DNA of 64,000 nt from Kibdelosporangium persicum (lineage in GTDB: Bacteria; Actinomycetota; Actinomycetes; Mycobacteriales; Pseudonocardiaceae). The stretch covers positions 1 to 64,000 of the forward strand of contig NZ_JAAATY010000031.1 of the NCBI RefSeq assembly GCF_013280595.1. Reading direction: 5' to 3'. Shown piece after piece: positions 1 through 56,877 of this stretch (position 1 is the first letter of the stretch; every line of letters starts with the position of its first letter). The notes beneath the pieces are model-generated. The model made no database searches, had not been told where the DNA came from, and saw only the letters and a list, made by a program, of their open reading frames with translations. The position numbers and the translations under genes are program-made.

Positions 1-188
1 AGCATTGACCACCCACCAAGGCACCCCCGCCCCAACAACTCACAGTGGAAAAGCTGGGCAGACCAGCGGCTCCCGCACGCCCACGACAGAAACCACCGGC
101 CCACCAACACAACCACCCACGACCAAGATCACCAACAAAACCCATCGGTGGATCTGGGTTCTAACCCGGATAAACACTCACGAGGGGG
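1..188. other. Left-edge non-coding stretch
   Basis: C-rich, low-complexity sequence (many ccacc/caac runs) precedes the C39-like peptidase stop. A short open frame runs rightwards through it (positions 5-199, Thr/Pro-rich, about 64 codons) but has no recognisable domain, no ribosome site and ends inside the dispersed palindrome. It is probably not a gene, although the end of a gene entering from outside the window cannot be excluded. Confidence 0.4.
156..188. repeat. Dispersed palindrome, copy 1 (half element)
   Basis: The core gggttctaaccc and an intact right arm GATAAACACTCACGAG are present, but the left arm that should mirror it is replaced by unrelated sequence (cccatcggtggatct). It lies just past the 3' end of the C39-like peptidase gene. 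Five other copies in the window have both arms. Confidence 0.8.
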
Positions 189-1421
189 TCATGGGGTGAT
201 GATGTAGGCGATGCCGCCGGGACCTCCCGCGACCGAACCGTCCGTGCGGTACCGCTTGGTGCGTTGCCAGATGTTTTCGAACTGGGCTCGCTTGTAGACG
301 TTGCGGACACGGTCGTTGCTGGCGGACGCCGGGTCGTTGACGATCACGTCGCCGTCCTTCGTGAAGCCGATGACCACCATGATGTGGCCGGCCGTGCCGT
401 AGCCCGCGCCATCGAGCTCCGAAGCCAGGAACGACTGCGAGGTGATCACCGGGATGCCGCGCCTGATGTACCGCTCCAGCTCGGCGAGCGAGCGCAGCCG
501 GGTCACGTGCGCCTTCAGGCCGTACGTCGCCGCGTAGGCGGTGTTGAACGGCCAGTTGCCCGTTCCGTCGTAGTCCTTGTCGTAGGTGAACCGGGCCGCG
601 TGGTCGACGCTCGGGTCCGCATAGGACGGATCGACCCATGCCAGATCCTCTGGGGAGGGCCGCTTTCCCCAGTACTCCACGACCATCTGCGTCGAGGTCG
701 GGCTGCACCAGGCCTCACCGCCGCCGCCGTACTCCGGATACTGTCCGATGTGGATGTTCTGGGAGTACCGCGGCACCGTCAGCTCGATGCCCCAGGCACC
801 GGCATTCGGGCTCGTCGGAACCGTGAAGCGGTCCGGGATCGCGGACGTCATCGCGCCGGCCATGGACAACGTCGGCGATTCGTCGGTTCCCGCGGCACGG
901 TAGAGCGTCACGCGGAGCTGGTAGGCGCGCAGCGGCGACCGAGCGACGAACGTGTCGACGTCGATGTAGCCGTGCTCGTCAGTCTGCTGCGGCAGGCTCG
1001 TGCGGCGGATGTCCGTGTCGGGCAGGGCCCATCGGCCCATGCCGTACCAGATGGTCTCGGCCCCGGACGCCGTCTTCCCGCGCATGTCCACGCGCAGCCA
1101 AGTGCCCTTGGGCGTGGTGGCGTTCCACGAGGCGACGAGCTGCGTCGCGTCGAATCCCTGGCGGTAGTACGGCGACGTCCACGTGCCGTACTCGTACGCG
1201 CGGGTGCCCATGTCCGGCTCTGTATGGTCGATCGTGCCCGCCGGGCGCCCGATCCGCAGGCCGCGCAGGGTCGGGATCAGGCCGTCGCGCTGGCCCGCGA
1301 AGAAGAAGTCGTGCTTCTGCCACGAGTGGAAGTCGACCGGCGCCTGCGGCTGGGCCGCCGTCGCGGGAAGGACGGGCAACGACAGCAGGGTGGCTATGGT
1401 CAGCAGGGCTAAGCGGGTCAT
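189..1421 (-). CDS. Secreted C39-like peptidase
   Basis: A 410-residue exported protein. The start chosen (MTRLALL) follows a GGGAG ribosome site by about 7 nt and opens a Sec signal peptide of about 23 residues ending ATAAQ; a more upstream in-frame ATG has no such support. The N-terminal half is probably a beta-sandwich region. The C-terminal half has the papain-fold C39-like signature: a Cys in GEAWCSPTS (near residue 235), a His in GHIMVVIGF (near 350) and an Asp in VNDP. The Cys-His-Asp order fits the Peptidase_C39_2 family. No ABC transporter or bacteriocin gene is adjacent, so a free-standing extracellular cysteine peptidase or amidase-like role is more likely than leader-peptide processing. 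Substrate unknown. Confidence 0.8.
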   Translation of the reverse strand: MTRLALLTIATLLSLPVLPATAAQPQAPVDFHSWQKHDFFFAGQRDGLIPTLRGLRIGRPAGTIDHTEPDMGTRAYEYGTWTSPYYRQGFDATQLVASWNATTPKGTWLRVDMRGKTASGAETIWYGMGRWALPDTDIRRTSLPQQTDEHGYIDVDTFVARSPLRAYQLRVTLYRAAGTDESPTLSMAGAMTSAIPDRFTVPTSPNAGAWGIELTVPRYSQNIHIGQYPEYGGGGEAWCSPTSTQMVVEYWGKRPSPEDLAWVDPSYADPSVDHAARFTYDKDYDGTGNWPFNTAYAATYGLKAHVTRLRSLAELERYIRRGIPVITSQSFLASELDGAGYGTAGHIMVVIGFTKDGDVIVNDPASASNDRVRNVYKRAQFENIWQRTKRYRTDGSVAGGPGGIAYIITP

Positions 1422-1483
1422 GGCGTCTCCCTCGGATCCGTGGGAGATATTTTCATCATTGTGATAGATCATGTAAACAGCTG

Positions 1484-2053
1484 TCAGGGTGGATCACGGT
1501 CGAGCTCGTCCAGGAAGTCCTTCCAGAACTGCTCCACCGTGCGCTCGTAGCGCAGCCCCAGCTCCAGGGTCTTGAGCTGCCACCGGTCGGCCACCGCCTC
1601 GATCTGGGCGCGCTGCTGGTCGTAGCCGTCCGCACGGGCCCGGTGCGACCGGTAACGGTCTCTGGCCAGTCGGCGGATGTCGTCGGGCGTCGCGCTGACT
1701 CCGAAGAACAGCTTGAGCAGACCGGTGTCCCGGACCTCGGTCTGCTCAAGGGTGGGCTCGGCGAGCCAGTCGGCCAGCGCTTTGCGGCCCTCGTCGGTGA
1801 TCGCGTACGTCCTTTTGCGTCTGCCGCCCTTCTCGGTGGTCTGGGTGACCAGGCCGGCCGCGGCCAGCCGGGCGGGTTCGTCGTACAGCTGCGAGTGCGC
1901 GAACGCCCAGAAGTTGCCGACGGTCCGGCCGACCCGTTGTTTGAGCTCGTAGCTCGTGGCCGGACCGTACGAGAGCATGCCGAGAACGACGTACGAGGTC
2001 GCGTTGAGCTTGCGGGAGCGGCCTGCGGCCGGCTCGTCGAAATCGGCGGGCAG
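1484..2053 (-). CDS. PadR-family transcriptional regulator with CTG start
   Basis: A 189-residue PadR protein with N-terminal winged helix (LNATSYVVLGMLSYGPATSYELKQ is split here as LNATSYVVLGMLSYG then PATSYELKQ) and a C-terminal vinculin-like dimerisation helix. The first in-frame ATG (1978) lies inside the conserved first helix and would cut the fold. The frame is open upstream to a TGA at 2062-2060 and contains no ATG or GTG there. The only suitable start is CTG at 2053, placed 9 nt after a perfect AGGAGG. PadR proteins usually repress a neighbouring efflux or catabolic gene; no such partner is evident, and the flanking peptidase and phosphoesterase genes look unrelated. Confidence 0.82.
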   Translation of the reverse strand: MPADFDEPAAGRSRKLNATSYVVLGMLSYGPATSYELKQRVGRTVGNFWAFAHSQLYDEPARLAAAGLVTQTTEKGGRRKRTYAITDEGRKALADWLAEPTLEQTEVRDTGLLKLFFGVSATPDDIRRLARDRYRSHRARADGYDQQRAQIEAVADRWQLKTLELGLRYERTVEQFWKDFLDELDRDPP

Positions 2054-2149
2054 CGGGAGTCACCTCCTGGGAACGAGGCCCTGACCATAGCGATCACCCG
2101 GCGGTTGCGCCGCTCCCCATAGCACCACACTCCAGCGGTTCCCGCCTGG

Positions 2150-3859: not shown

Positions 3860-4048
3860 GCGCCGATCCTGCCGGAGAACATGAAGAAAAGTCACTACTC
3901 CGAAGGTAGCTGCCGAGCCTCTTGGCTCCACTGTGGACGTGAGCACAAACTTGAGTTCTCACACGGGAAAGTGCTCAACTTTGGGCTTCGGGACGGGCGC
4001 GTTCGCCCCCGGCCGGGCGGCGGGAGCGAACGCGAAGCGCCCACGCGG

Positions 4049-4864: not shown

Positions 4865-4881
4865 GACACTAACTGTAAGCA

Positions 4882-4906
4882 GGGTACTAACTCGCGGTAA
4901 GTACCC
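4882..4906. promoter_or_regulatory. HxlR operator candidate in divergent promoter
   Basis: Perfect 7-bp inverted repeat GGGTACT-N11-AGTACCC between the divergent oxidoreductase and HxlR genes. Leftward -10 TACAGT lies at 4877-4872 and rightward -10 TATACT at 4919-4924, so one dimer could control both promoters. Confidence 0.65.
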
Positions 4907-4930
4907 ACTTTGCTGTCATATACTTACTTC

Positions 4931-5314
4931 ATGGAAAGTGCCTTGGTCGACGTCTTCGACATGAACTGTCCGTCGAGGGCGGTCATGGAACACCTGTCGA
5001 GCCGCTGGGGCGTGCTCATCCAGGTCATGCTGCTGCGGGAAGGCACTCTGCGGTTCAGCGAGCTGCGCCGGGCGATCGGCGGCGTCAGCGAGAAGATGCT
5101 GGCGCAGACGCTGCAGGCGCTTGAGCGGGACGGCATCGTCCGCCGCGTCGTGCACCCCGTCATCCCGCCGCACGTCGACTACAGCCTGACCGACCTCGGC
5201 GAGGCCGCCGCGAAGGCCGTGAACACCCTGTTCGACCTGATCGGCGACCGGTGGGCCGAGTTCGAGAAGGCACAGGTGGAGTACGACCAGCGCAAAGCCG
5301 CCCAGCCATTGTGA
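4931..5314 (+). CDS. HxlR-family transcriptional regulator
   Basis: A 127-residue winged-helix protein of the HxlR/DUF24 type: one Cys near the N-terminus (MNCPSRAVME), SSRWGVLI helix, SELRRAIGGVSEKMLAQTLQ recognition region and a DYSLTDLG wing. In this family the N-terminal Cys senses electrophiles or hypochlorite. ATG 4931 is preferred to the TTG at 4910: the -10 hexamer TATACT ends at 4924, placing the likely transcription start on or next to this ATG, so the mRNA appears leaderless. Its stop overlaps the next gene by 4 bp (GTGA), so the two are co-translated. Confidence 0.87.
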   Translation: MESALVDVFDMNCPSRAVMEHLSSRWGVLIQVMLLREGTLRFSELRRAIGGVSEKMLAQTLQALERDGIVRRVVHPVIPPHVDYSLTDLGEAAAKAVNTLFDLIGDRWAEFEKAQVEYDQRKAAQPL

Positions 5315-7413: not shown

Positions 7414-7442
7414 GTCTGGACCATTAGGTACTATCACGGTGT

Positions 7443-9906: not shown

Positions 9907-10477
9907 CTATCGAGTCGACGACGACGTGCTCCTCGACGCGGCACGCAGCTGCGTGCTGGCCATCGGCGTCGGCCGGACCACCCTCACCGAGGTCGCCCGG
10001 CGTGCCCAGGTCAGCCGGATGACGCTGTACCGCCGGTTCCCGGACGTGCGCAGCCTGATCGCGGCCCTGATGACCAGGGAGTTCGGCGGGCTGCTCGCCG
10101 AGATCTCGGCGTCGTTGACCGCGCCGGCGGCTCGCGAGCGGCTGGTGACCGGCCTGACGACCGGCATCCGGGTGCTCGTGGACAACCCAATCATGCGGGC
10201 GGCGCTGGACCTTGAACCCGAACTGATCCTGCCGTACGTGGTGCAGCGGCTGGGCAGCACGCAACGGCTGACTGAGCAGTTCATCGCCGACCAGCTGAAG
10301 GCGGGGCACCAGGACGGCTCCATCCGGGTCGCCGACGTACCCACGCAGTCGCGGGCGGTCCTGCTGGTCATCCAGTCCTTCGTCCTCTCGCTGCGACCTG
10401 CCACGTCCGATGTGGACAAAGACGCGCTGCTCACCGAACTGGGCACGATGCTGCACGGTGCCTTGGAGCATCGGTGA
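9887..10477 (+). CDS. TetR-family regulator of the ether-lipid/glycerol-phosphate locus
   Basis: A 196-residue TetR protein: N-terminal helix-turn-helix (TEVARRAQVSRMTLYRRFPD, residues about 33-52) and a C-terminal ligand-binding helical domain. It sits between the divergent AGPS-like gene and glpD, overlaps glpD by 4 bp (GTGA), and an inverted repeat overlaps its start codon. A lipid or acyl ligand would fit the neighbours, but this is inference. Confidence 0.88.
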   Translation: MTSQRHTYRVDDDVLLDAARSCVLAIGVGRTTLTEVARRAQVSRMTLYRRFPDVRSLIAALMTREFGGLLAEISASLTAPAARERLVTGLTTGIRVLVDNPIMRAALDLEPELILPYVVQRLGSTQRLTEQFIADQLKAGHQDGSIRVADVPTQSRAVLLVIQSFVLSLRPATSDVDKDALLTELGTMLHGALEHR

Positions 10478-11964
10478 ACACCTCGCTCAACGCGCGGCGG
10501 CGGACCGCCGACATGACCGAAGCGGCCAAGGACGTCGTCGACGTGCTGGTCATCGGCGGCGGGGTGACCGGCGCCGGTGTCGCGCTGGACGCCGCTTCCC
10601 GTGGCCTGTCGGTGGTCCTGGCCGAGGCGCACGACCTGGCGTTCGGTACGTCCAGGTGGTCGAGCAAGCTGATCCACGGCGGGCTTCGGTACCTGGCAAA
10701 CGGCGACGTCGGACTCGCGTACGAGAGCGCGGTCGAGCGCGGAATCGTGATGACCCGCACCGCGCCACACCTCACCAGGCCGCTCCCCCAGCTCATTCCC
10801 TTGCACGAAGGCGTTTCCGGCACGCTGGCGATGACCGGCCTGCAGGCGGGCGACGTGCTGCGCCGGTTGGCGCGGACGCCTTCCGCTCTGCTTCCGAGGC
10901 CACGGCGCGTGCCCGCGGCCGAAGCGCTCGCGCTGGCGCCCGGGTTGAAGCGCGAAGGTCTGCGGGGCGGCCTGCTCTCGTATGACGGTCAGGTGATCGA
11001 CGACGCACGGTTCGTGGTCGCACTGGCCAGGACCGCCGCCGGGTTCGGCGCCAGAATCCTGACCAGGACCAAGGCCGTTTCGCTCGACGGCGACGGCGCG
11101 CGGCTGCGGGACACGCTGACCGGGTCGGAATTTGACGTCCGGGCCAGGAAAGTGATCAACGCGACCGGCGTTTGGGCAGGTCAGCTCGTTCCGGCCGTGC
11201 GGTTGCGCCCGTCGCGCGGCACGCACGTCGTGCTGGCGTCCACCGGGATCACGGGGACGTCGCTGACCGTGCCGATTCCCGGTTCCCGCAACCGGTTCGC
11301 GCTCGTTCTGCCCCAGGTGGACGGCCGGATCCACATCGGGCTGACCGACGAGCCGGTGGACGGCGAGATCCCGGACGTGCCCACGGCACCGGACTCCGAT
11401 GTGGACTTCCTGCTCTCGGTCGCGTCTTCGGTGCTCGAACGGCCGCTCACCCGCGCTGACGTGCTGGGTGCGTACGCCGGACTGCGTCCGTTGCTCGACG
11501 CATCAGGCGCGAGCGCCGACCTTTCCCGGCGGCACGCCGTGCTGACCGCGCCCAACGGCGTGATCACCGTTGTCGGCGGCAAGTTCACGACGTACCGCCG
11601 AATGGCCGCCGACGCGGTCGACGCCACCGGGCTCACCACGGTTCCGGCACGTACCAAGGACATTCCGCTCGTCGGTGCCACGGCACGCGGGCGACTCACC
11701 CGAATCGACGCACCGGCTAGGCTGATCGCCAAGTACGGCACGGAAGCCGTGCAGGTGGCCAAGCTGGACCCGACGCGGCTGCACCCGGACCTCACGGCGG
11801 CCGAGGTAATTTGGGCCGTCGAGCACGAGGGCGCGCTGGACGCCGAGGACGTGCTGCACCGCCGCAGCCGTGTGGGCCTCGTTCCGGCCGAAGCGAACCC
11901 CCTGGTAGACATCGTGAGTGTTTATACGGGTTCTAACCCGTACAAACACTCACGAGGGTCTTGA
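10474..11964 (+). CDS. glpD: Glycerol-3-phosphate dehydrogenase/oxidase, repeat-derived C-terminus
   Basis: A 496-residue FAD-dependent glycerol-3-phosphate dehydrogenase that would oxidise G3P to dihydroxyacetone phosphate at the membrane. It has an N-terminal Rossmann motif (VIGGGVTGAGVALDAASRGL), the GlpD signature GTSRWSSKLIHGGLRYL and VVGGKFTTYRRMAADAV near residue 365. Start GTG 10474 overlaps the tetR stop. The normal fold runs to about ALDAEDVLHRRSRVGLVP; after AEANPLVD the last 18 residues (IVSVYTGSNPYKHSRGS region) are translated from the dispersed palindrome at 11912, so the native stop has been lost or replaced. The DHAP product is the precursor used by the AGPS-like partner. Confidence 0.88.
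   Translation: MNTSLNARRRTADMTEAAKDVVDVLVIGGGVTGAGVALDAASRGLSVVLAEAHDLAFGTSRWSSKLIHGGLRYLANGDVGLAYESAVERGIVMTRTAPHLTRPLPQLIPLHEGVSGTLAMTGLQAGDVLRRLARTPSALLPRPRRVPAAEALALAPGLKREGLRGGLLSYDGQVIDDARFVVALARTAAGFGARILTRTKAVSLDGDGARLRDTLTGSEFDVRARKVINATGVWAGQLVPAVRLRPSRGTHVVLASTGITGTSLTVPIPGSRNRFALVLPQVDGRIHIGLTDEPVDGEIPDVPTAPDSDVDFLLSVASSVLERPLTRADVLGAYAGLRPLLDASGASADLSRRHAVLTAPNGVITVVGGKFTTYRRMAADAVDATGLTTVPARTKDIPLVGATARGRLTRIDAPARLIAKYGTEAVQVAKLDPTRLHPDLTAAEVIWAVEHEGALDAEDVLHRRSRVGLVPAEANPLVDIVSVYTGSNPYKHSRGS
11912..11955. repeat. Dispersed palindrome, copy 2 (inside glpD 3' end)
   Basis: 21-bp arms beginning TCGTGAGTGTTTATACGGG around a 2-nt centre, with one mismatch. It is translated as the C-terminus of GlpD and is followed by the TGA at 11962-11964. 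Confidence 0.9.
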
Positions 11965-19488: not shown

Positions 19489-19996
19489 GGATGGACACCG
19501 TACTAGTCCGGACCCGGTCGGGGTGCGGAACCGGCAGCCGGAACATCTCCCAGCGGCACGTCCGGGCTGCTGCCGCGAGGTGGGACGACGGCTGTTTCGC
19601 CCCGCCGGAGCCGGATCTCGATGGTGCTTCGTCCGCCATGGCAGCGTGCGTCCGTGTTCGTCCCGTACGTCCACTTCGCCGGAAGTCCGTGACACAGGGC
19701 CAAAGGCGCACTGGCGCGGCCGCGGCCCCTGATCCACTCGGCCCGGTAGGACGCGTCAGCGCGAAGGCTCCTGTGACGTTTCTCCTTGTCGCACAAGCCA
19801 TCTTGCGCAACTGGGCCCGTCTTGTGGTGGTCGCGTCCAAGATGGACCCGCCGACGGTCCGTTCCTCCATGAGGCCTACACCGAGCGGACACACGGTGCC
19901 GGAAAGGTCGACACGGGGTGCCGGAAAGGCGGACACGGGGTGCCGGAAAGGCGGACACGGGGTGCCGGAAAGGTCGACACGAGGTGCTGGAGTGGG
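19489..19996. other. Non-coding stretch with 22-bp tandem array
   Basis: Positions 19489-19894 hold the amidohydrolase promoter region and otherwise nothing I can identify; several open frames exist on the minus strand but have atypical, Arg/Ser-rich translations. Positions 19895-19982 are a tandem repeat array. The remainder leads to the toxin stop codon. Confidence 0.5.
19895..19982. repeat. 22-bp tandem repeat array, four units
   Basis: Four head-to-tail 22-bp units at 19895, 19917, 19939 and 19961, plus a degenerate fifth beginning at 19983 (ggtgctgg). Each begins GGTGCCGGAAAGG; the two inner units read GCGGACACGG thereafter while the outer two read GTCGACACG(G/A), giving an A-B-B-A pattern. 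There are no unique spacers, so it is not CRISPR. It ends about 15 bp from the toxin stop. Confidence 0.9.
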
Positions 19997-22657: not shown

Positions 22658-22710
22658 GGCTCCCCTGAACGGCAGAACGACAAAACCCGCCATTCAGGGG
22701 AGCCCTTGTT
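22658..22710 (+). terminator. Terminator of the protease gene
   Basis: 12-bp stem GGCTCCCCTGAA / TTCAGGGGAGCC enclosing 23 nt, followed by cttgtttt. The right arm also belongs to the 59-bp repeated cassette. Confidence 0.7.
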
Positions 22711-22736
22711 TTCACGGTAGCGCGTGGGTCTGACAG
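22678..22736 (-). repeat. 59-bp cassette copy A with damage-type promoter
   Basis: About 52 of 59 positions match the copy at 27180-27238. Read leftwards it contains CTGTCAGAC-N8-TACCGT (22736-22714), a PafBC-type promoter motif, followed by GGGCTCCCCTGAATGGCGGG. Here the downstream sequence can fold on the protease terminator arm, so a leftward transcript would start with a hairpin. Confidence 0.75.
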
Positions 22737-22919
22737 TTTCCGCCGCTCACCGGGCTGACCTGGGGACCTGGCTGCTCCTCGGCCAGTTCCAGGTCCAGAT
22801 CCACCGCCCCAAGCGCGCTACCGCAAGCCCGCCGCTCCAACTCCGCTACCCCAACTCGACTTGTTCCAGGCCCACCGCTCCAGCTCCACCGCGGCAACCC
22901 ACGCCACTGCCGATCACAC

Positions 22920-27179: not shown

Positions 27180-27238
27180 CGACAAATCCCGCCATTCAGG
27201 GGAGCCCTTGATTTCACGTTAGCGCGGAGGTCCGACAA
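27180..27238 (-). repeat. 59-bp cassette copy B with damage-type promoter
   Basis: Second copy of the cassette at 22678. Read leftwards: TTGTCGGAC-N8-TAACGT (27238-27216), then GGGCTCCCCTGAATGGCGGG. The opposite hairpin arm seen beside copy A is missing here. It lies upstream of the MFS gene and in the same orientation. Confidence 0.75.
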
Positions 27239-27307
27239 TTCACCCGCGCACGACCGGCCAGTCACCCAGGGCACCGACGGCCGGCTGGAAAACCCTGAAC
27301 ACGACGA

Positions 27308-32596: not shown

Positions 32597-32650
32597 ACCC
32601 CTCGTGAGTGTTTATCAGTGTTAGAACACGGATAAACACTCACGAGGGGT
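32597..32650. repeat. Dispersed palindrome, copy 3
   Basis: 20-bp perfect arms ACCCCTCGTGAGTGTTTATC and complement, with an inner GTGTT-AGA-AACAC-like stem. Located between the ureA start and the 3' end of the cyclodeaminase-like gene, 8 bp past that gene's stop. Confidence 0.92.
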
Positions 32651-32658: not shown

Positions 32659-33606
32659 TCACAGCGGCACGTCGACGCCGACGCCCAGCTCGGCAGCCCG
32701 GCGCAACACGTGGTCGGCGGCGTACAGGTCCTCGGTGGCGATGCCCAGCGACCGGAACATCGTGATCGCGTCCGGACCGGAGCGGCCGGTGGCCTTGCCG
32801 ATCAGCAGGTCCCCGAGTTCACCGCGGACGTCCGGCGGGTCGATCTGGAACTCCTTGGCCTCGCCTTGGACGGACTGCATCGCGTCGACGTAGAGCTCGG
32901 CTGCCTTGGCGGTTCGCGTGTCGACTTCCTGATGGTGCACGGTGCTCGCGCCCACGGCGTTGACGTGCGTGCCGGGACTGAGCCAATCCCGTTGCACGAC
33001 AGGCTCTTTCGAAGTCGTCACGGTCACGACGATGTCCGCGTCCCGGACGGCTTGCTCGGCGCTGCCGACTGCTTTCAGGTCGAAGGCGACGTCCATCCGC
33101 TCCACCAGCGCGGGCGCGGATCGCGGCGAGAACACGCGCGCTTCTTTGATGTCCCGGACCAGAGGAATGGCGCGCAGATGCGCCTCGGCCTGCACACCGG
33201 CGCCGATGATCGCGAGCGTTTCGGCGTTTTCCCTGGCCAGCAACCGGGTCGCCAAGGCGGACACCGCGGCGGTCCGGATTTCGGTGATCGCCGAAGCGTT
33301 CAGAAAAGCCAGCGGCTCGCCGGTGACACCGTCGAAGAGGATGACCGCGCCCTGGTGCGTGTCCATCCCGCGTCCCGGATTGTCCGGCACGATGCACAAC
33401 AGTTTTGTGCCGAAGATCGCGTGTTCCCCGCCACGGTAAGCGGGCATCCACACACCGAACGCATTCGTGGCGGACGGCGTGAACACTTTCCGCAGCGGCT
33501 GCTCGACCAGGCCCTCCGCCCTGGCGCGGAGGGCCGCGGCCATCACCTCGACGCACTCGCTCATCGGCAGTGCGCGGTGGACGTCCGCCGCGGAGAGGAT
33601 TTGCAT
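32659..33606 (-). CDS. Ornithine cyclodeaminase / mu-crystallin family protein
   Basis: A 315-residue NAD(P)-dependent enzyme. Rossmann motif LAIIGAGVQAEAHLRAI (near residue 130) and family segments GTKLLCIVPDNP, GAVILFDGVTGEPLAFLNAS and ALATRLLA. Members deaminate ornithine to proline, dehydrogenate alanine or reduce cyclic imines (ketimine reductase); sequence alone does not tell which. Its 3' end meets palindrome copy 3. A GATAGT -10-like box lies 9 nt before the ATG. Confidence 0.9.
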   Translation of the reverse strand: MQILSAADVHRALPMSECVEVMAAALRARAEGLVEQPLRKVFTPSATNAFGVWMPAYRGGEHAIFGTKLLCIVPDNPGRGMDTHQGAVILFDGVTGEPLAFLNASAITEIRTAAVSALATRLLARENAETLAIIGAGVQAEAHLRAIPLVRDIKEARVFSPRSAPALVERMDVAFDLKAVGSAEQAVRDADIVVTVTTSKEPVVQRDWLSPGTHVNAVGASTVHHQEVDTRTAKAAELYVDAMQSVQGEAKEFQIDPPDVRGELGDLLIGKATGRSGPDAITMFRSLGIATEDLYAADHVLRRAAELGVGVDVPL

Positions 33607-38326: not shown

Positions 38327-39486
38327 CCGAAGCGGCCGACCGTTACTTCTGGCTGTGGGACACGTTCTTCGCACTCGTCTACGTCACGGTTGTCCTCTTG
38401 GTTCTGTTCATGGCCGAGGGAGCGACCACGGCTGAGCGCGCGGGTTCGATCGTGCTGTTGACCATCATCGCGGCCTGCTACGCCTTCTTCGGCAGGCGCG
38501 AGATGCACGCCGAACGATTCGGTTGGCGGCTCAACCTGTTCGTCGGCATCCTGTTCTGTTGCCTTGTCGCGTCGGCGTTCCTGGTGCCGATCACCCAGTA
38601 CAGCTTCTTCGGCGTGATCCCGCTGCTGTTCATGAGCTTGCGGTTGACCGTGGCGATCGTGCTGGTCGCGATGTCCATCGTGGTGACGACGCTGTTCGCG
38701 ACCTTAGGCGATCCGTACACGAACTGGCTGGCCACCGGCGTGGCGATCGGGATCAGCACGCTCTTCTCGGTGATGATCGGCATCTGGATCGACAAGGTGG
38801 TCCGGCAGAGCACCGAACGCGGCGAGCTGATCAAGCAGTTGGAGGCCAGCCAGGCGGAGGTCGCCCGGCTGTCGCGGGAGGCCGGCGTCGCCGGGGAACG
38901 CGAGCGGCTGGCGGGCGAGATCCACGACACCCTGGCCCAGGGCTTCACCAGCATCGTCACGTTGGTGCAGGCCGCGGAATCCGAACTCGGCAGGGACGAA
39001 ACGCAGGTACGTAAGCATCTGGCGCTCGCGTTGCGGACCGCGCGGGAGAACCTGTCCGAATCCCGTGCCCTGGTCGCGGCCCTGGCGCCGGCCGAGCTGG
39101 CCGAGAGTTCGGTGCTGGACGCGATCCGGCGGCAGGCGGCCAAGCTGACCGAGGAGACCGGTGTCTCGGCCGAGGTCGCCGTGCAGGGTGAGCGGCGGCC
39201 GTTGGCGACCGGGATCGACGTGGTGCTGCTGCGGACCGTGCAGGAGTCACTGTCCAATGTGCGCAAGCACGCCGACGCGCGCAGTGTCGAGATCGTACTG
39301 TCCTATCAGGAGAGTTCAGTCGTGCTGCTGGTCACCGACGACGGCAAGGGCTTCGACCCGGCCGCGGTGACCAGCGGGTTCGGGTTGCGCGGGATGCGGT
39401 CGCGGATCGAGCACGTCGGTGGCGCGTTGTCGGTGACCAGCTCGACCGGCTCGGGCACCACCGTCGAACTGGAGGTGTGCACGTGA
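38323..39486 (+). CDS. NarL-type sensor histidine kinase
   Basis: A 387-residue kinase: about five TM helices in residues 10-155 without a large external domain, a coiled linker (LIKQLEASQAEVARLSREA), HisKA_3 with the phospho-acceptor His in ERLAGEIHDTLAQGF (near residue 205) and an HATPase domain with VQESLSNVRKHADA and DDGKGFDP. Such short-loop kinases often sense cell-envelope or membrane cues through the paired ABC exporter. GTG overlaps the permease stop. Confidence 0.9.
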   Translation: MTEAADRYFWLWDTFFALVYVTVVLLVLFMAEGATTAERAGSIVLLTIIAACYAFFGRREMHAERFGWRLNLFVGILFCCLVASAFLVPITQYSFFGVIPLLFMSLRLTVAIVLVAMSIVVTTLFATLGDPYTNWLATGVAIGISTLFSVMIGIWIDKVVRQSTERGELIKQLEASQAEVARLSREAGVAGERERLAGEIHDTLAQGFTSIVTLVQAAESELGRDETQVRKHLALALRTARENLSESRALVAALAPAELAESSVLDAIRRQAAKLTEETGVSAEVAVQGERRPLATGIDVVLLRTVQESLSNVRKHADARSVEIVLSYQESSVVLLVTDDGKGFDPAAVTSGFGLRGMRSRIEHVGGALSVTSSTGSGTTVELEVCT

Positions 39487-40100
39487 TCAAGGTGCTGCTC
39501 GTCGACGACCACCCCGTGGTGCGGGAAGGGTTGCGCGGCATGCTCGACGCCGAGCCGGATCTGGTGGTGGTCGGCGAGGCCGGGTCCGGCGAGGAGGCCG
39601 TGGCCATGGCGACGGCGGCACGTCCCGACGTCATCCTGATGGACCTGCGGATGCCCGGCCTGGACGGCGCGGGCGCCACCGAGAAGATCACGTCCCTGAA
39701 CATCGGCAGCCGTGTCATCGTGCTCACGACGTACGAGACGGACGCGGACATCCTGCGCGCCGTCGAGGCGGGCGCGACCGGCTACCTGTTGAAGGACGCG
39801 TCCCGTGCCGAACTGGCCGGTGCCATCCGGGCCGCGACGCGAGGCGAAACCGTGCTGGCGCCTTCCGTGGCCGGGCGGCTGATGCGGCGGATGCGCCAGC
39901 CCGCGCAGCAATCCCTGAGCGCGCGGGAGATCCAGGTGCTCCGGCTTGTCGCGAAAGGACAGACCAACGCGGAGATCGGAGCCTCGCTGCACATCAGCGA
40001 GACCACCGTGAAGACGCACCTGCTGCGCGTGTTCAACAAGCTCGGCGTCTCCGACCGGACCGCGGCCGTCACCACCGCCATGTCCCAAGGCATCCTCTGA
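39483..40100 (+). CDS. NarL/LuxR response regulator
   Basis: A 205-residue regulator: receiver domain with DDHP, phosphorylatable Asp in VILMDLRMPG (near residue 52), Thr/Ser in VLTTYE and Lys in YLLKDA; C-terminal LuxR HTH (LSAREIQVLRLVAKGQTNAE). GTG 39483 overlaps the kinase stop (GTGA) and gives the usual MIKVLLVDDH start; a GTG two codons earlier is possible. Likely target: the P450 and ABC promoters with their palindromes. Confidence 0.9.
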   Translation: MIKVLLVDDHPVVREGLRGMLDAEPDLVVVGEAGSGEEAVAMATAARPDVILMDLRMPGLDGAGATEKITSLNIGSRVIVLTTYETDADILRAVEAGATGYLLKDASRAELAGAIRAATRGETVLAPSVAGRLMRRMRQPAQQSLSAREIQVLRLVAKGQTNAEIGASLHISETTVKTHLLRVFNKLGVSDRTAAVTTAMSQGIL

Positions 40101-40103: not shown

Positions 40104-40157
40104 ACCCCTCGTGAGTGTTTATCCGGGTTAGAACACGGATAAACACTCACGAGGGGT
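40104..40157. repeat. Dispersed palindrome, copy 4
   Basis: 22-bp perfect arms opening ACCCCTCGTGAGTGTTTATC around ggttagaaca. It fills the 69-bp gap between the convergent response regulator and serC genes. Outside it, CTGAAAAACCCC and GGGGTTTTCAG form a second, outer complementary pair, so the region would make a strong bidirectional terminator. Confidence 0.93.
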
Positions 40158-40169: not shown

Positions 40170-41393
<1,224 letters not shown>

Positions 41394-51187: not shown

Positions 51188-52279
51188 GTGCGCGCGCTGC
51201 GAGTTGTCGGGCTCGGCGAGGATGGCAGGACTGTCATCCTCGAAGACCCGATGCGTGGCGAGCGTTTCCAGCTCCCGGCGGACGAGCGGTTGCGTGCGGC
51301 TGCCCGTGGCGACGTCACCAGACTCGGCCAGATCGAAATCGAGCTGGAGAGCCAGATGCGCCCACGTGAAATCCAGGCCCGTATCCGTGCGGGTGAGTCC
51401 GTCGCCCAGGTCGCCGAGGCGTCCGGCCTGCCGGAGGACAAGGTCGAGCGGTTCGCCTACCCGGTGCTGCTCGAACGGTCCCGCACGGCGGACCTGGCCC
51501 AGCGCGCCCACCCGGTCCGGGAGGACGGGCCGGACGTGCAGACGCTCGGCGAGGTCTGCGCGCACGCGTTCGGCCTGCGCGGGCAGGAGTACTCCGAGGC
51601 GGTCTGGGACTCGTGGAAGAACGAGGAGAACAAGTGGATCGTCCAGCTGCGCTGGACGGCGGGCCGCTCGGACAACCGCGCGCACTGGTCCTTCCACCCG
51701 GGTGCGCACGGCGGCACGGTCACTCCGCTCGACGACCACGCCCACGACCTGCTCGACCCGAACCCGAACAGGTCGCTGCGGACCGTACGGCCGGTCACCG
51801 AACTGGCCAGGCAAGCGCTTGCGGTCGAGGCTGCGGCCCGTCCGCAGCCGGTCACGCCTGAGCCGATCGAGCCGGTCTACACCGAGCCACGCCACCAGGC
51901 GGAACCGGCCTACCAGCCGGAGCCCGCGCGCCAGCCGGAACCGGAACCGGTCTACCGCCAGCCGGAGCCCGAGCCCGCTCCCGCCGTGGCACACCGCCCG
52001 GAGCCGCAGCCCGAACCGCAGCCGGTGGTACGGCCGGACCCGGTTCCGGCTGCGGTCGAGCCCGAACCGGCGCCGGCACCGGAGCCCGAGCCCGCACCCG
52101 CTCCGGCGGCCCCGGCCGCGTCGGGCAAGCCGGTGCAGGAGGAACTGGTGCCGGAGCCCGAGCCGAAGCCGGAAGCGGCCAAGGACAAGCCCGCGCCCCG
52201 GCGTGGCAAGAAGAAGAACCACCCGGTCGTCCCGGCCTGGGAGGACGTCCTGCTGGGCGTCCGCTCCAACCGAGGCTGA
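51188..52279 (+). CDS. sepH: Septation protein SepH
   Basis: A 363-residue SepH (DUF3071), which binds FtsZ and promotes septum assembly in actinobacteria. Conserved N-terminal domain: RALRVVGLGEDGRTVILEDP, a helix-turn-helix (AGESVAQVAEASGLPEDKVE) and YAYPVLLERSRTA-like FAYPVLLERSRTADLAQRAH, then WTAGRSDNRAHWSF. A long Pro/Glu-rich repeat (about residues 220-330) leads to the conserved C-terminus KNHPVVPAWEDVLLGVRSNR. GTG 51188 is 6 nt after GGGAGG. Confidence 0.95.
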   Translation: MRALRVVGLGEDGRTVILEDPMRGERFQLPADERLRAAARGDVTRLGQIEIELESQMRPREIQARIRAGESVAQVAEASGLPEDKVERFAYPVLLERSRTADLAQRAHPVREDGPDVQTLGEVCAHAFGLRGQEYSEAVWDSWKNEENKWIVQLRWTAGRSDNRAHWSFHPGAHGGTVTPLDDHAHDLLDPNPNRSLRTVRPVTELARQALAVEAAARPQPVTPEPIEPVYTEPRHQAEPAYQPEPARQPEPEPVYRQPEPEPAPAVAHRPEPQPEPQPVVRPDPVPAAVEPEPAPAPEPEPAPAPAAPAASGKPVQEELVPEPEPKPEAAKDKPAPRRGKKKNHPVVPAWEDVLLGVRSNRG

Positions 52280-52282
52280 CAC

Positions 52283-52336
52283 CCCCCTCGTGAGTGTTTA
52301 TCAGGGTTAGAACCCCGATAAATACTCACGAGGGGG
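52283..52336. repeat. Dispersed palindrome, copy 5
   Basis: 20-bp arms CCCCCTCGTGAGTGTTTATC and complement with one mismatch. It begins 4 bp after the sepH stop and borders the decayed membrane-protein gene. Confidence 0.92.
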
Positions 52337-53065
52337 TACAGCACCGCGCTGGACCGCGCCGCCGCAGGGCTTCGGTGAAGAACGGCGGCGTCTCGGGGTT
52401 GCTCGTGAACCGCGAACGGTACCGGCGCCAACGGCACCAGCACCGCTGCCAGCGTGCCGAACCACAGCAGTCGCAGTGGAACGTGCGTGGCGTTCTCGGC
52501 GAAGGTTTGGATTCGTTGGCACGCCATCGCGAGCAGGATTCCGACCGCCGGAACACACGCCATGAACCGTGATCACCAGTGCCCGGGCGGCGGCCACGCA
52601 CCACGACCAGATTCCCAGCACCGCCAGGAAAATCACCAATGACCAGCCGAGAAACGCGTTCTCCTCGGTCGGGTTGATGGCGAACTGCCTGCTCACCTCG
52701 GACGGGCCCGCCAGCGAGTAGCTGCCGAACGCGGTCACGGTTGCCAGGTCGTTCCCGGCGAGGGCGTGGTTCATGTCGGCGTAGCTCTGCGACCCGAAGA
52801 ACTGGTGCCACAAGGGATACGCGACAACATGTGCTGGTCCTGCCCGGCGCCGGGCAGATAGCCGTGCCGCAGGTCAGTCCACATGCGACTGTAGAGCAGC
52901 GCCGCCGCGAGCGCGTACACGCCGACGACGAACGCGTCCGTCGCGGTCGGGCGAGCGGCCGTCTGCCGGATCCGTTGGGTCAACCCGATCACAACCCGAA
53001 GACACAGCCGTGTGGTGCTCGGGTTGTTGACCTCCAGTGCACTTGAGGTCGCAGGATGGCCCATG
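52337..53065 (-). pseudogene. Decayed polytopic membrane protein (glycosyltransferase-like)
   Basis: Leftward fragments in three frames of one protein. The N-terminal part (DAFVVGVYALAAALLYSRMW then LRHGYLPGAGQDQHML, near 52960-52830) is joined directly to a far-downstream part (WHQFFGSQSYADMNH ... NPTEENAFLGW, 52812 leftwards), so the middle is deleted. A shift near 52563 moves to VGILLAMACQRIQTFAENAT ... LLWFGTLAAVLVPLAP, and another to ETPPFFTEALRR. The end is cut by palindrome copy 5. Intact homologues are large actinobacterial GT-C-like membrane proteins. Confidence 0.7.
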
Positions 53066-53158
53066 GCGAAGGTGGCGGCCGCGGCACGGAAATTCGGGTG
53101 CACCGGATCGCGTTGCTTTGTAACGTCGAAGGCTGGCATCTACCTGTTTGGGGGCAAG

Positions 53159-54931
53159 ATGGAGGAGGCGGAGCAACCACGCTCGGCCTATCGATCCCTG
53201 TGGCGCCTCGGTCCTTACGCGCGACCGTGGCGCCGTCGGCTGGTACTCGCGATCGTCGCCACGATCTGTGCGATGGCCGCGGGCCTGACTATTCCGCTGA
53301 TGATCCAGAGCATCCTGGACGGCCCGATCGCCCGGGGTGAGACCACCGGCCTGATCTGGCCGGTCCTCGGGATCGCACTGCTCGGCTTCGCGGAGGCCGG
53401 GCTTTTCTATTGCCGCCGAAAGATGCTCGCGCGGCCGACGACACACATCGAGGCGCGGATGCGCCATGACATCTACGCGCACCTGCAGCGCCTGCCGGTC
53501 TCGTTCCACGACCGTTGGCAGTCCGGGCAGCTGCTGTCCCGCGCGGTGACCGACTTGTCCACCATCCGCGGGTTCTTCGCGTTCGTCGGGGTTTTCCTCG
53601 TGGTGAACAGCCTCACCCTGGTCGGTGGCCTGGTCGTGCTGTTCTCGCTGGACTTCTGGCTGGGCCTGACCGTGCTGATCTCGGCGCTGCCGTTGATCGC
53701 GATCTCCACGGTGTTCGAGCGCAAGTACAAGGTCGTCGCCCGGCTCGCCCAGGACCAGGACGGCGACCTCGCCACCACGGTCGAGGAGTCCGCGCTCGGT
53801 ATCCGGGTGCTCAAGGCGTTCGGCCGTGGCCCGCACCTCGCGGCCAAGTTCGCCAAACAGGCCAAGGTGTTGCGCGGCACCGAACTTCACAAAGTACGGA
53901 TCTCCTCGCTGCTGTGGGGCGCGATCGTGCTGCTGCCGGAGATCGGCATCGCCGGGCAGTTGCTGGTCGGCACGTCCGGGATCGTCAACGGCACGATGAC
54001 CGTCGGCACGCTCGTCGCCGCCGTGACCGTCGCGGCGTACCTGCGGTGGCCGACCGACTCGATCGGCTGGCTGCTCGCCGAGACCAACCAGACGTCCGCC
54101 GCGACCGACCGGTACTTCGAAGTGCTGGACGAGCCGGTGACCGTGGCCGATCCGGCCGACCCGAAGCCGCCCGCCAGTCCGCCGCGCGGCCTGCTGCGGT
54201 TCGACAACGTCCACTTCAGACACACCGAAGGCGGCAAGGAGATCCTGCGCGGCGTGGATCTGGAGGTCCGGCCCGGCGAGACGGTCGCGCTGGTCGGTGC
54301 CACCGGAACCGGTAAGACCACGCTCACCGCGCTGGTGCCGCGGCTTGCCGACGTGACCGAAGGCCGGATCACGATCGACGGCGTGAACGTCGCGGACATG
54401 CGGCTGGCTGACCTGCGCACCCTGGTGTCGGTCGCGTTCGAGGAGCCGGTGTTGTTCTCCGCCAGCGTGCGGGAGAACGTCGCGCTGGGGTCCACGGACG
54501 CCACGGACGAACAGGTCTGGGAGGCGCTGCGAGTCGCTCAGGCCGACGGGTTCGTCACCGCGTTGCCATGGGGCCTGGACACCCGGATCGGCGAGCAGGG
54601 CCTGTCACTGTCCGGCGGTCAACGGCAGCGGCTCGCACTGGCCCGCACGATCGTCGGCAGGCCGGCGGTCCTGGTGCTCGACGACCCACTGTCCGCTTTG
54701 GACGTGCACACCGAGGCCGAGGTGGAACGCGCGCTGCGCGAGGTGCTGTCCGGCGTGACCGCGTTGGTGGTCGCGCACCGGCCGAGCACGGTCCAGCTCG
54801 CCGACCGGGTCGCGATGCTGGCCGACGGCCGGATCGCCGCCGTCGGGACGCATTCCGAGCTGCTGGCGGGCAACTCGGCCTACCGCAGGCTTCTGTCTAC
54901 TTTGGATGAGTCGGAGGAGGTGAGGGCGTGA
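53159..54931 (+). CDS. Heterodimeric ABC exporter, subunit 1 (degenerate ATP site)
   Basis: A 590-residue half-transporter: six TM helices (about 25-310) and an NBD with Walker A GATGTGKTT (near residue 385), signature LSGGQRQRLALAR and Walker B LVLDDPLSALD. The residue after the Walker B Asp is Asp, not the catalytic Glu, so this ATP site is degenerate, as in TM287/288- or BmrCD-type pairs. ATG 53159 follows a GGGGGCAAG sequence. Overlaps subunit 2 by 4 bp (GTGA). Confidence 0.9.
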   Translation: MEEAEQPRSAYRSLWRLGPYARPWRRRLVLAIVATICAMAAGLTIPLMIQSILDGPIARGETTGLIWPVLGIALLGFAEAGLFYCRRKMLARPTTHIEARMRHDIYAHLQRLPVSFHDRWQSGQLLSRAVTDLSTIRGFFAFVGVFLVVNSLTLVGGLVVLFSLDFWLGLTVLISALPLIAISTVFERKYKVVARLAQDQDGDLATTVEESALGIRVLKAFGRGPHLAAKFAKQAKVLRGTELHKVRISSLLWGAIVLLPEIGIAGQLLVGTSGIVNGTMTVGTLVAAVTVAAYLRWPTDSIGWLLAETNQTSAATDRYFEVLDEPVTVADPADPKPPASPPRGLLRFDNVHFRHTEGGKEILRGVDLEVRPGETVALVGATGTGKTTLTALVPRLADVTEGRITIDGVNVADMRLADLRTLVSVAFEEPVLFSASVRENVALGSTDATDEQVWEALRVAQADGFVTALPWGLDTRIGEQGLSLSGGQRQRLALARTIVGRPAVLVLDDPLSALDVHTEAEVERALREVLSGVTALVVAHRPSTVQLADRVAMLADGRIAAVGTHSELLAGNSAYRRLLSTLDESEEVRA

Positions 54932-56826
54932 GCGAGCTTGCGAGCGAATCATCCGGCGCAGGGCCGGGCTCAGGCGACGGGACTGCCGGACCGCGCGAGA
55001 TCCGTATGAGTCAGGACGAGTCGTGGCGCGGGGTCGCGGCCGAAGAGGTCCAGGAACTGGACTCCGTGGTGGGCGCCAAGTTGCAGGCCCGCTCGCGCAA
55101 GCTGCTCGGGTCGTTGATCCGCCCGCGCCTCTGGCCGGCCGCGGCCGCGCTGACCCTGGTGATCCTGCAGAACCTGTCGTCGCTGGCGGGTCCGTTGCTG
55201 ATCGCCGCGGCGATCGACACCGGTATCCCGTCGGCGATGAACGGTGACCACAGCGTTCTCGCCTGGTGCATCGGCGCGTACGCCTTCAGCGCGATCGCGA
55301 ACTCCGGCCTGCTGATGGCGTTCCAGCGGCTGGCCGCCCGGATCAGCCAGGACGTGCTGCTCGACCTGCGGCAGCGGCTGTTCCGGCACGTGCAGCGGCT
55401 TTCCTTGTCGTTCCACGAGTCCTACACCTCAGGCAAGGTGATCTCGCGGCTGACCGCGGACATGGAGTCGATCAACAAGCTGTTGGAGGACGGCTTGGAC
55501 AACATGCTCAACGCGATCCTGTCGCTGGTTTTCATCGGCACGCTGTTGCTGGTCCTGGACGTCCCGCTGGCGTTGATCGTGATGGCCGGGTTCGTCCCGC
55601 TGGTCCTCATGCTGCGCTGGTTCCGGAACACGTCGGGCCGGGCGTACCGGCACACGCGCGGCGCGATCGCCAAGGTGATCGTGCAGTTCGTCGAGACCAT
55701 GAACGGAATCCGCGCGGTGCAGGCGTTCCGCCGGGAACGCCGCAACGAGGCCATCATGAACGTCGAGAACGTCGCGTACCGGGACGCCAACCACACCGCG
55801 ATCGGCGCGGTGGCGACGTTCGTGGCGAGCGTGCGGTTCATCGGCAACCTGTCGCTGGCGATCGTGCTGGGCGTCGGCGCGTGGCGGGTGACCGGCGGCA
55901 GCATGGAACTCGGCGTGCTGACCGCGTTCACGCTGTACCTGCGGCGGTTCTACGACCCGCTGGACGACCTGGCGCAGGTCGCGAACTCCTACGCGTCGGC
56001 GAGCGCGGCACTGGAGAAGATCTCCGGCGTGCTCGAAGAGGCGCCTGCGGTCGTCGAGCCCGCGAAGCCGAAGCTGTTGCCCCGCGCGGGAACCATCGAG
56101 TTCGACAACGTGGAGTTCCGGTACGGCCCGGACGGGCCGGTGGTGCTGCCGGCGTTCGACCTGACCATCCCGGCCGGGCAGACCGTCGCCCTGGTCGGCG
56201 CGACCGGCGCGGGCAAGTCCACGATCGCCAAGCTGGTCGGCCGGTTCTACGACCCCACAGCGGGGTCCGTCCGGCTGTCCGGAGTGGACCTGCGGGACGC
56301 CGCGGACGCGGACCTGCGGTCCAAGGTGGTCACCGTGACCCAGGAGAACTTCCTGTTCTCCGGCTCGGTCGCGGACAACATCGCGCTCGGCAGGCCCTCG
56401 GCGAGCCGCGGCGAGATCGAGTCGGCAGCCGCGGCGGTCGGCGCGCACGAGTTCATCGCGGCCCTGCCGGACGGCTACGACACTGACGTGCGCAAGCGCG
56501 GCGGCAGGCTTTCCGCGGGCCAACGCCAGCTGGTCGCGTTCGCGCGGGCGTTTCTGGCCGACCCGGCCGTGCTGGTCCTCGACGAGGCCACGTCCAGCCT
56601 GGACGTTCCCGGCGAGCGGGCGGTGCAGGCCGCGCTGGAGACCGTGCTGACCGACCGGACCGCGTTGATCATCGCGCACCGGCTGTCGACCGTGCTGATC
56701 GCCGACAGGGTGCTCGTGGTCGACGGCGGCCGGATCGTCGAGGACGGTTCCCCCGCCGACCTCATCGCCGCAGGTGACGGCGAGTTCGCCAGCCTGCACC
56801 GCGCCTGGCTCGACTCCCTCGCCTGA
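54928..56826 (+). CDS. Heterodimeric ABC exporter, subunit 2
   Basis: A 632-residue half-transporter with an N-terminal acidic extension (about 50 residues), six TM helices and a canonical NBD: Walker [10 protein letters not shown] (near residue 425), Walker [12 protein letters not shown] with the catalytic Glu. Its signature reads RLSAGQRQ instead of LSGGQ, which is the complementary change expected for the degenerate composite site shared with subunit 1. Multidrug or lipid export is likely; the substrate is unknown. Palindrome copy 6 follows the stop. Confidence 0.92.
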
Positions 56827-56831
56827 ACCCC

Positions 56832-56877
56832 CTCGTGAGTGTTTATCAGGGTTCTAACACTGATAAACACTCACGAG
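56832..56877. repeat. Dispersed palindrome, copy 6
   Basis: 17-bp perfect arms CTCGTGAGTGTTTATCA and complement, between the convergent ABC exporter and DUF2537 genes; it abuts the DUF2537 stop codon (56880-56878). Confidence 0.92.

What the first reader, a model, noticed from the sequence alone, without database searches (positions are those of the whole stretch)
156..56877. Dispersed palindrome family at gene 3' ends
Six copies (156-188 half copy, 11912-11955, 32597-32650, 40104-40157, 52283-52336, 56832-56877) share arms CTCGTGAGTGTTTATC with a variable centre containing GTTCTAAC or its complement GTTAGAAC, in both orientations. All lie within a few bases of stop codons, three between convergent genes. 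Arms vary by only 1-2 bases over 40 kb while the centres differ, so the arms seem to be kept or copied. They could be a REP-like family acting as bidirectional terminators and spread by an unlinked enzyme, comparable to RAYT-moved REPs. I do not know this family from the literature.
Basis: partly seen in the sequence, partly recalled or inferred. Interest (0 to 1): 0.75.

Follow-up and report, generated by a model that had tools for sequence, protein, structure and literature searches.

The report
REP-like palindromes at gene ends
A soil actinomycete carries about four hundred copies of a 44-letter hairpin-forming DNA repeat tucked behind its genes; the repeat behaves like a tiny mobile element, some related species carry their own version of it at the same gene ends, and the enzyme usually blamed for such repeats was not found.

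Summary
The six places are five copies of a 44-nt palindrome (TCGTGAGTG, inner stem, GTT[CT/AG]AAC, inner stem, CACTCACGA) and one half copy, split by an IS1380-type insertion sequence. The genome holds 395 exact-footed copies, control 1. In 0.86 Mb read, 41 of 56 copies lie within 30 nt of a gene's 3' end (random placement 23%). The family is patchy across Pseudonocardiaceae (0-465 copies), and same-footed palindromes recur in other actinobacterial families. It is REP-like and mobile: among eight Amycolatopsis with near-identical flanks one gene end is filled in 2. The usual mover, RAYT (PF01797), is absent here and from 11 of 12 element-bearing genomes of other genera. Congeners carry the element at the same gene ends far above chance (12 ends, 1.9 expected, G000/G163). 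There, 18 of 18 copies fit their own genome's inner-stem profile, clearly only in comparisons with G027. Most ends without the element have no strong hairpin and tandem copies lack a U-tract, so a terminator role looks secondary. The mover is unknown.

The parts
1..158 (+). Right end of an IS1380-type insertion sequence (transposase with DDE_Tnp_1_4, read at L053:1647-3029, outside the window) inserted in the loop of a palindrome; contig C31 begins here
   Evidence: 155-nt match, one of 8 right ends in the genome; in 8 of 8 the IS abuts a half palindrome at the same point of the loop; PF13701 E 3e-27. The exact last base of the IS (155-158) is uncertain because GGG fits both IS and element.
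156..188 (.). Half palindrome left by that insertion, 3' of the minus-strand gene 189-1472 (Peptidase_C39_2)
11912..11955 (.). 44-nt palindrome, CT centre, inside the last codons of ORF 10474-11964 (DAO/DAO_C, glycerol-3-phosphate dehydrogenase-like)
32597..32650 (.). Palindrome (core 32602-32645), AG centre, 13 nt from the stop of minus-strand gene 32659-33606 (OCD_Mu_crystall)
40104..40157 (.). Palindrome (core 40109-40152), AG centre, between convergent genes 39483-40100 (+, response regulator) and 40170-41306 (-, Aminotran_5)
52283..52336 (.). Palindrome (core 52288-52331), AG centre, 8 nt after gene 51188-52279 (+, DUF3071), tandem context
56828..56877 (.). Palindrome (core 56833-56876), CT centre, filling the 51-nt gap between convergent genes 55006-56826 (+, ABC exporter) and 56878-57459 (-, DUF2537)

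Best explanation
These are REP-like, non-autonomous, palindromic mobile elements: a within-genome population of 44-nt hairpins that is found mainly in the first bases behind stop codons, where insertion does little harm. Shown: a paired heptamer foot (TCGTGAG/CTCACGA) and an almost invariant loop (GTTCTAAC) with a variable inner stem; hundreds of copies; 3'-end bias; filled and empty versions of the same gene end among genomes with 94.8-97.5% identical flanks; decayed copies and low counts in some congeners; and the same gene ends occupied in related species, by copies that fit the host's own inner-stem profile (clear for G027 against G000 and G163). Inferred: an enzyme that recognises foot and loop of the extruded or single-stranded hairpin copies elements between sites and, at occupied sites, can overwrite the old inner stem with the current one (homing-like replacement), so that position is kept while sequence is homogenised within a genome. 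It would act in trans and is not a recognisable RAYT. Loop inversion, seen once with the arms unchanged, fits hairpin or cruciform processing. Any effect on transcript ends would be a by-product.
For: Copy number 395 against 1 for the control. 41 of 56 copies within 30 nt of a 3' end against 23% for random intergenic placement; 24 convergent, 20 tandem, 9 divergent, 3 in genes; G163 12 of 16 against 17%, G027 6 of 7 against 20%. Filled/empty polymorphism: site A filled in G600 (= Amycolatopsis circi) and G602, empty in 6 further genomes (flanks of the seven 94.8-97.5% identical to G600), 2 of 20 fetched in all; site B intact in 1 and decayed in 1 of 14; sites C and D intact, decayed, reduced to a foot, or empty among 9 genomes, of which G222 is gapped at site C. 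Co-occupied gene ends: G000/G163 12 of 174 (1.9 expected, p 4e-10), G000/G027 7 of 208 (0.8), G000/G065 3 of 192 (0.3). Inner-stem profiles: 24 of 24 copy comparisons, 18 distinct copies, score higher under their own genome's profile; the four G000/G027 site pairs differ at 10-14 positions against within-genome medians of 3-5. Paired variation in G163: 326 of 427 inner-stem positions matched against 260 (sd 6.7) with shuffled partners (4 of the 61 copies counted twice); with the 16 fetched copies alone 88 of 112 against 67.5 (sd 3.8). No bias of loop orientation to transcription (12 AG: 11 CT tandem copies in G000) points to DNA-level rather than RNA-level recognition of the loop. At one site G600 and G604 have the loop inverted with asymmetric arms unchanged.
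Against: No mobilising enzyme identified. No clean target-site duplication could be read at any empty/filled pair (whose output was cut). Overwriting in place is inferred from orthologous positions; repeated independent insertion at preferred ends would look similar. For G000/G163 the inner-stem evidence is weak: the six site pairs differ at 4-11 positions against within-genome medians of 3-12, at two sites the orthologue is nearer than the median G000 copy, one G163 copy (partner of C1:38682) belongs to a minor subfamily there, and log-odds go down to 1.4. In G000 itself inner-stem pairing is barely above shuffled partners (305 against 296, sd 4.4). In G058 the 3'-end bias was weak (2 of 6 against 14%). 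Nine of 56 own copies sit between divergent genes by my caller.
Confidence: 0.65

Rival explanations
1. Bidirectional transcription terminators under selection: the hairpins end transcripts from both sides and are kept because gene ends need them; species differences are drift of a structure-only element.
For: Strong hairpins, position directly behind stops and in convergent gaps of about 45-60 nt, covarying inner stems in G163, CCCC/GGGG extension of the stem, T excess beside convergent copies (0.28 against 0.18, 76 sides; partly the reverse stop codons, my inference). Ends without the element still exceed coding DNA somewhat in strong hairpins (share at or below -25 kcal/mol: G000 convergent 0.29 against 0.21, G131 convergent 0.26 against 0.12).
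Against: No downstream T excess in 24 tandem cases (0.22; upstream mirrored A 0.28). Medians of ends without the element are at the coding level (G000 convergent -21.4 against -20.4), as are orthologous ends that lack it while the partner has it (-19.3, n 97, 0.26 at or below -25). The loop and foot, which a terminator does not need, are the most conserved parts. Close relatives do without it.
Confidence: 0.21
2. Binding or uptake-type signal with species dialects (like DNA uptake sequences in Neisseriaceae terminators): a protein recognises the sequence, and biased recombination or selection homogenises it within each species.
For: Genome-specific inner stems at shared positions, inverted-repeat form at gene ends; the uptake-sequence parallel is recalled, only the listing of PMC1852404 was seen.
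Against: Outer foot and loop are shared across the family while the inner stem changes, the reverse of a dialect in the recognised core; filled/empty polymorphism at about 96% identity. Natural competence in this group was not tested.
Confidence: 0.07
3. Derivatives (MITE-like) of, or substrates moved by, the IS1380-type IS whose ends abut the loop.
For: IS right ends abut a half palindrome in 8 of 8 cases. The first 7 nt of the IS left end (CCCTGAT) equal the most common inner arm beside the CT loop; with the loop hexamer, which is target DNA, 13 nt are the same.
Against: The 8 half copies show 7 different half-element sequences and 8 different flanks, so the elements were there first and the IS used them as target. 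Element feet do not match the IS terminal repeats. The only relative of the transposase among the other genomes' fetched loci (44-51% identity, G163) has no TTAGAA/TTCTAA within the 3.1 kb examined.
Confidence: 0.05

Closest known systems
REP / REPIN elements moved by TnpA-REP (RAYT), GTAG-tagged superfamily
   Same: Small palindromes in hundreds of copies, mostly extragenic, next to 3' ends of convergent and tandem genes, sometimes supplying the stop codon (PMC3733652 section 15); used as targets by ISs (PMC1525189 passages); a polarity and imperfect stem.
   Different: No GTAG foot; the foot is a paired heptamer TCGTGAG/CTCACGA on both sides; RAYT domain absent from this genome. PMC6006769 reports that Actinobacteridae in its sample carry only subclass 1.1 of these enzymes, which I take to be the IS200 type (passage). 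Same gene ends carry host-specific inner stems in some relatives.
CGTC-tagged REPs, mainly of Alphaproteobacteria
   Same: REPs that apparently lack a dedicated transposase (PMC3733652 abstract).
   Different: Other tag and other phylum; the words actinobacteri-, Mycobacterium, Streptomyces, Saccharopolyspora and Amycolatopsis have 0 hits in that paper's main text.
REPs tabulated for Actinomycetota by RepRanger (PMC12306157)
   Same: Its table lists REP counts for three Actinomycetota genomes, e.g. Arthrobacter livingstonensis (one passage seen).
   Different: Whether any of those is TCGTGAG-footed was not checked; the word RAYT has 0 hits there.
Intrinsic bidirectional terminators
   Same: Strong hairpin in convergent gaps.
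   Different: No U-tract in tandem copies; conserved loop and foot; mostly not replaced where absent.
REP-targeting insertion sequences (IS3, IS110, IS4, IS256, IS5 families)
   Same: The IS here lands in the palindrome in 8 of 8 right ends.
   Different: Its transposase is DDE_Tnp_1_4 (labelled IS1380-type from memory); PMC1525189 names IS3, IS110, IS4, IS256 and IS5 and has 0 mentions of IS1380.

Membership tests
REP (broad sense) | Short palindrome in more than 100 dispersed, mainly extragenic copies | tested here: met
   395 exact-footed copies; 3 of 56 inside called genes
REP (broad sense) | Location next to 3' ends, between convergent or tandem genes | tested here: met
   41 of 56 within 30 nt of a 3' end, null 23%; 44 of 56 convergent or tandem
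RAYT-associated (GTAG) REP | GTAG-type tetranucleotide foot beside the hairpin | tested here: not met
   Aligned flanks show CCCC/GGGG and no fixed tetranucleotide beyond them
RAYT-associated (GTAG) REP | A Y1 (PF01797) TnpA-REP gene in the genome, flanked by the repeats | tested here: not met
   0 matches in G000, G163, G027, G093; matches in G065, G131, G114, G147; 1 of 12 element-bearing genomes of other genera. A divergent HUH enzyme cannot be excluded.
CGTC REP | CGTC tag at one end | tested here: not met
   Flank profile
Intrinsic terminator | Stable stem-loop in the transcript | tested here: met
   -29.6 to -43 kcal/mol, z -8.5 to -11.3, five window copies
Intrinsic terminator | U-tract directly downstream | tested here: inconclusive
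   Tandem: T 0.22 at +5..+14 in 24 cases, background 0.21; convergent sides: 0.28 against 0.18
Intrinsic terminator | Transcripts end there | not testable with these tools
   needs Term-seq
Mobile element | Filled and empty orthologous sites among close relatives | tested here: met
   Site A filled in 2 of 8 genomes, flanks 94.8-97.5% identical to G600
Mobile element | Target-site duplication or exact junction | tested here: inconclusive
   Intergenic indels blur the junctions
IS1380-derived MITE | Ends match the IS terminal repeats | tested here: not met
   Feet CCCCTCGTGAG against CCC[TA]GATCCACCG; only the inner arm ATCAGGG resembles the IS end

The most novel reading that the evidence does not exclude
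TCGTGAG-footed palindromes are an actinobacterial superfamily of REP-like elements spread without RAYT, by an unknown enzyme that recognises the paired foot and the loop and overwrites resident copies in place: genomic addresses are inherited, while the inner stem is repeatedly replaced genome-wide by the currently active version. This would be concerted evolution of hundreds of dispersed 44-nt sites in a bacterium.
Probability: 0.3. Interest if true: 0.82.

Novelty: new variant of a known kind. Interest (0 to 1): 0.6.

Why it matters
REPs are usually explained by RAYT transposases, which this genome lacks by the test made. A large REP-like population here asks for a second way to spread palindromes, and the uneven counts within one genus (4 to about 395 copies) give a handle for finding it by gene presence and absence. 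The pattern of different inner stems at the same address makes in-place replacement directly testable. It also warns against reading such hairpins as needed terminators: close relatives do without them.

Tried and rejected
Plus-only arms in C1:594-969 kb looked like a replication-strand bias; it was a cut of the listing. RAYT as mover: rejected by PF01797 searches, which a divergent enzyme could escape. A gene flanked by element pairs as autonomous partner: genes between the six close pairs in G000 (under 3.5 kb apart; no such pair in the other genomes read by then) look ordinary (HisA-like, MarR-like, a Uma2-like protein and others, named from memory of their sequences), none repeated. RNA-level recognition of the loop: no orientation bias. 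Exact overlay of the native stop by TCG-TGA: suggested by sites A, D and C1:186138, but in 28 of 38 orthologue comparisons with an empty end the C-terminus differs in length. The frame bias is real (22 stops at TCG-TGA against 5 deeper, p 3.8e-7, which treats sites as independent) but selection for short tails explains it equally well. Rfam: no family in the window. Literature searches for the family listed nothing on it; the library holds open-licence papers only and only the top rows were seen. Class-level recurrence was checked with one permuted foot only. An IS1380-type relative in G163 is not at a loop.
Full report
What is there. The unit is a 44-nt palindrome: foot TCGTGAGTG, inner stem TTTATC-NGN, loop GTT[CT or AG]AAC and the mirror image, usually lengthened by CCCC/GGGG. 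All five folded window copies form single hairpins of -29.6 to -43 kcal/mol; none of 200 shuffles of each folds as well. In C1:1-400000, C1:580001-977628 and the window (0.86 Mb) there are 56 copies found by their feet, all 56 with an intact loop; a loop-based count gave 59, including 3 halves split by the IS. Genome-wide the two-footed pattern occurs 395 times, control 1.

The half copy. Window 1 to about 158 is the right end of an insertion sequence whose transposase matches DDE_Tnp_1_4 (PF13701, E 3e-27). Eight right ends were found and 8 of 8 stop at the same point of the loop of a palindrome, with 7 different half-element sequences and 8 different flanks, so the IS uses the palindrome as target. 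Of five left-end stretches read, four are followed by the loop hexamer TTAGAA or TTCTAA and the fifth by TT at a contig end, consistent with duplication of the hexamer. Only the copy in L053 was read to both ends, and its left flank is just those 2 nt. The first 7 nt of the IS left end, CCCTGAT, equal the commonest inner arm beside the CT loop; counting the loop hexamer, which is target DNA, 13 nt agree.

Where they sit. A codon-usage gene caller was trained on the same DNA (my own script, not a published caller). 41 of 56 copies lie within 30 nt of a 3' end, against 23% for random intergenic positions; 24 lie in convergent, 20 in tandem and 9 in divergent gaps and 3 in called genes; random placement gives 18, 48 and 34% for the three gap classes. 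In other genomes: G163 12 of 16, G027 6 of 7, G065 2 of 3, G054 3 of 5, G058 2 of 6 (nulls 17, 20, 21, 20 and 14%). Over the 93 copies in all genomes read, 105 gene ends lie near an element: 22 use TCG-TGA of the foot as stop, 5 stop deeper inside, and 78 stop 1 to 31 nt outside.

How widely. In 150 genomes of the family the two-footed pattern ranges from 0 to 465 copies; 71 of 150 have at least one match, many of them only one; the reversed control gives 0 to 2. My fetched 200 kb of G058, the genome with 465, holds 6 copies by the stricter palindromy criterion, since its inner stems are poorly paired. Within the genus: G000 395, G163 393 (spacing 28-32), G065 124, G027 121, G093 89, G131 15, G114 6, G147 4. 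G600 has contigs of the same lengths as the named A. circi records and 100% identity to them, which places the family in Pseudonocardiaceae. In a class sample of 296 genomes 23 have a match; clearly palindromic sets with other stems, loops and lengths of 42-46 nt are seen in G364 (72), G398 (13), G568 (13), G393 (11), G404 (4), G561 (4) and G479 (2), and weaker ones in G309 (5) (palindromy judged by eye on the listed copies, a capped list). A permuted foot in the same sample gives 25 of 296 with a match, mostly 1-2 non-palindromic ones, a few single partly palindromic hits, and one palindromic set of 5 (G544).

Mobility. In Amycolatopsis, site A (behind a DUF445-like gene; name from memory) is filled in G600 and G602 and empty in G613, G639, G604, G616, G272 and G222 (flanks of these seven 94.8-97.5% identical to G600); no element was found in the 12 more distant genomes, of which G054, G107 and G124 align poorly there. 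Site B is intact in G600, decayed in G272 and not found in the other 12 of 14 (flanks of the nearest eight 88-92% identical). Site C is intact in G600 and G604, decayed in G602, reduced to a foot in G616, not found in G639, G272, G613 and G597, and gapped in G222; between G600 and G604 the unequal arms keep their order while the loop is inverted. Site D is intact in G600, decayed in G602, a foot remnant in G272, and not found in the other six. Gain is the simpler reading for site A, but loss was not excluded by a tree. No target duplication could be read.

Same addresses, different inner stems. By flanking DNA, of the G000 sites that could be resolved, G163 has an element at 6 of 7, G027 at 4 of 6, G065 at 2 of 3; G131 at none of 4 (2 scored as remnants, one of them a 45-nt palindrome with a changed loop), G093 at none of 2 (49 to 54 of the 56 sites were unresolved in each comparison, mostly because only parts of the relatives were fetched). 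At both its sites G093 has palindromes of another family (GCAACCAATGTGGC...). By reciprocal best-hit genes, ends occupied in both are 12 of 174 for G000/G163 (1.9 expected), 7 of 208 for G000/G027 (0.8), 3 of 192 for G000/G065 (0.3), 4 of 121 for G027/G163 (0.6), 2 of 185 for G027/G065 (0.1), 4 of 134 for G065/G163 (0.4), and 0 in all pairs with G131 or G093, where no fetched gene end was occupied. A convergent copy counts for two ends, so these are not independent events. At shared sites each copy scores better under its own genome's inner-stem profile: 24 of 24 comparisons, 18 distinct copies. This is decisive for comparisons with G027 (log-odds 14.7 to 42.7; G000/G027 pairs differ at 10-14 positions, within-genome medians 3-5). 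It is weak for G000/G163: log-odds 1.4 to 16.4, pair differences 4-11 against medians 3-9 in G000 and 4-12 in G163; two of six G000 copies are nearer to their orthologue than to the median G000 copy, and one G163 copy is of a minor subfamily (TTTTCGCCGG). In G131 none of the 14 remaining two-footed copies keeps the GTT(CT/AG)AAC loop, as expected if upkeep has stopped.

Function. Terminator features are mixed. The downstream side of 24 tandem copies has no T excess (0.22, background 0.21), while the 76 sides of 38 convergent copies do (0.28 against 0.18). Gene ends with the element have a median best hairpin of -30.8 kcal/mol; convergent ends without it -21.4, coding DNA -20.4; 97 orthologous ends that lack it while the partner has it, -19.3. 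A minority of element-free ends have strong hairpins, somewhat above the coding rate (at or below -25: 0.29 against 0.21 in G000, 0.26 against 0.12 in G131). So most ends do not replace the element when it is absent.

The mover. PF01797 gives 0 matches in G000, G163, G027 and G093 and some in G065, G131, G114 and G147; among 12 further element-bearing genomes of other genera only G028 has it. PMC6006769 states that Actinobacteridae in its sample carry only subclass 1.1 of this enzyme group (passage read). The enzyme is therefore unknown or unrecognised.

Place among known things. REP-like by size, number, position and use by ISs; not a GTAG or CGTC REP by tag; not RAYT-linked by the test made. 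I file it as a new variant of REP-like elements. The in-place replacement reading is inference and is given as the novel case.

Noticed in passing
window 1-188; L048-L055: IS1380-type IS sits in the loop of the palindrome at 8 of 8 right ends; the first 7 nt of its left end (CCCTGAT) equal the commonest inner arm of the element, suggesting target recognition by end mimicry.
   Followed up: partly
G093 stretches L101-L103 and L146-L151; L204 (G636): A second dispersed palindrome family, GCAACCAATGTGGCC...GGCCACATTGGTTGC, sits in G093 at two gene ends where congeners have the TCGTGAG element; a similar CCAATGTGGCGT hairpin is at site B in Amycolatopsis G636.
   Followed up: no
L086:16934 (G163:C6): A copy with its 12-nt core GTGTTAGAACAC duplicated in tandem, possibly a scar of an insertion in the loop or slippage.
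   Followed up: no
G000 C1:101535, 156207, 186138: At three gene ends some relatives have an extra stretch of about 500-700 bp where G000 has only an element; loss of genes next to elements, perhaps by recombination between copies.
   Followed up: no
window 22678-22738 and 27180-27240: Two 61-nt repeats outside called genes, 89% alike, unrelated to the palindrome.
   Followed up: no
window 19885-19994: Tandem repeat with a 22-nt unit, about 5 copies (GCGGACACGGGGTGCCGGAAAG).
   Followed up: no
G544 (class sample): Five palindromes with the permuted control foot TGCGATG: another small dispersed palindrome family in a different actinobacterium.
   Followed up: no
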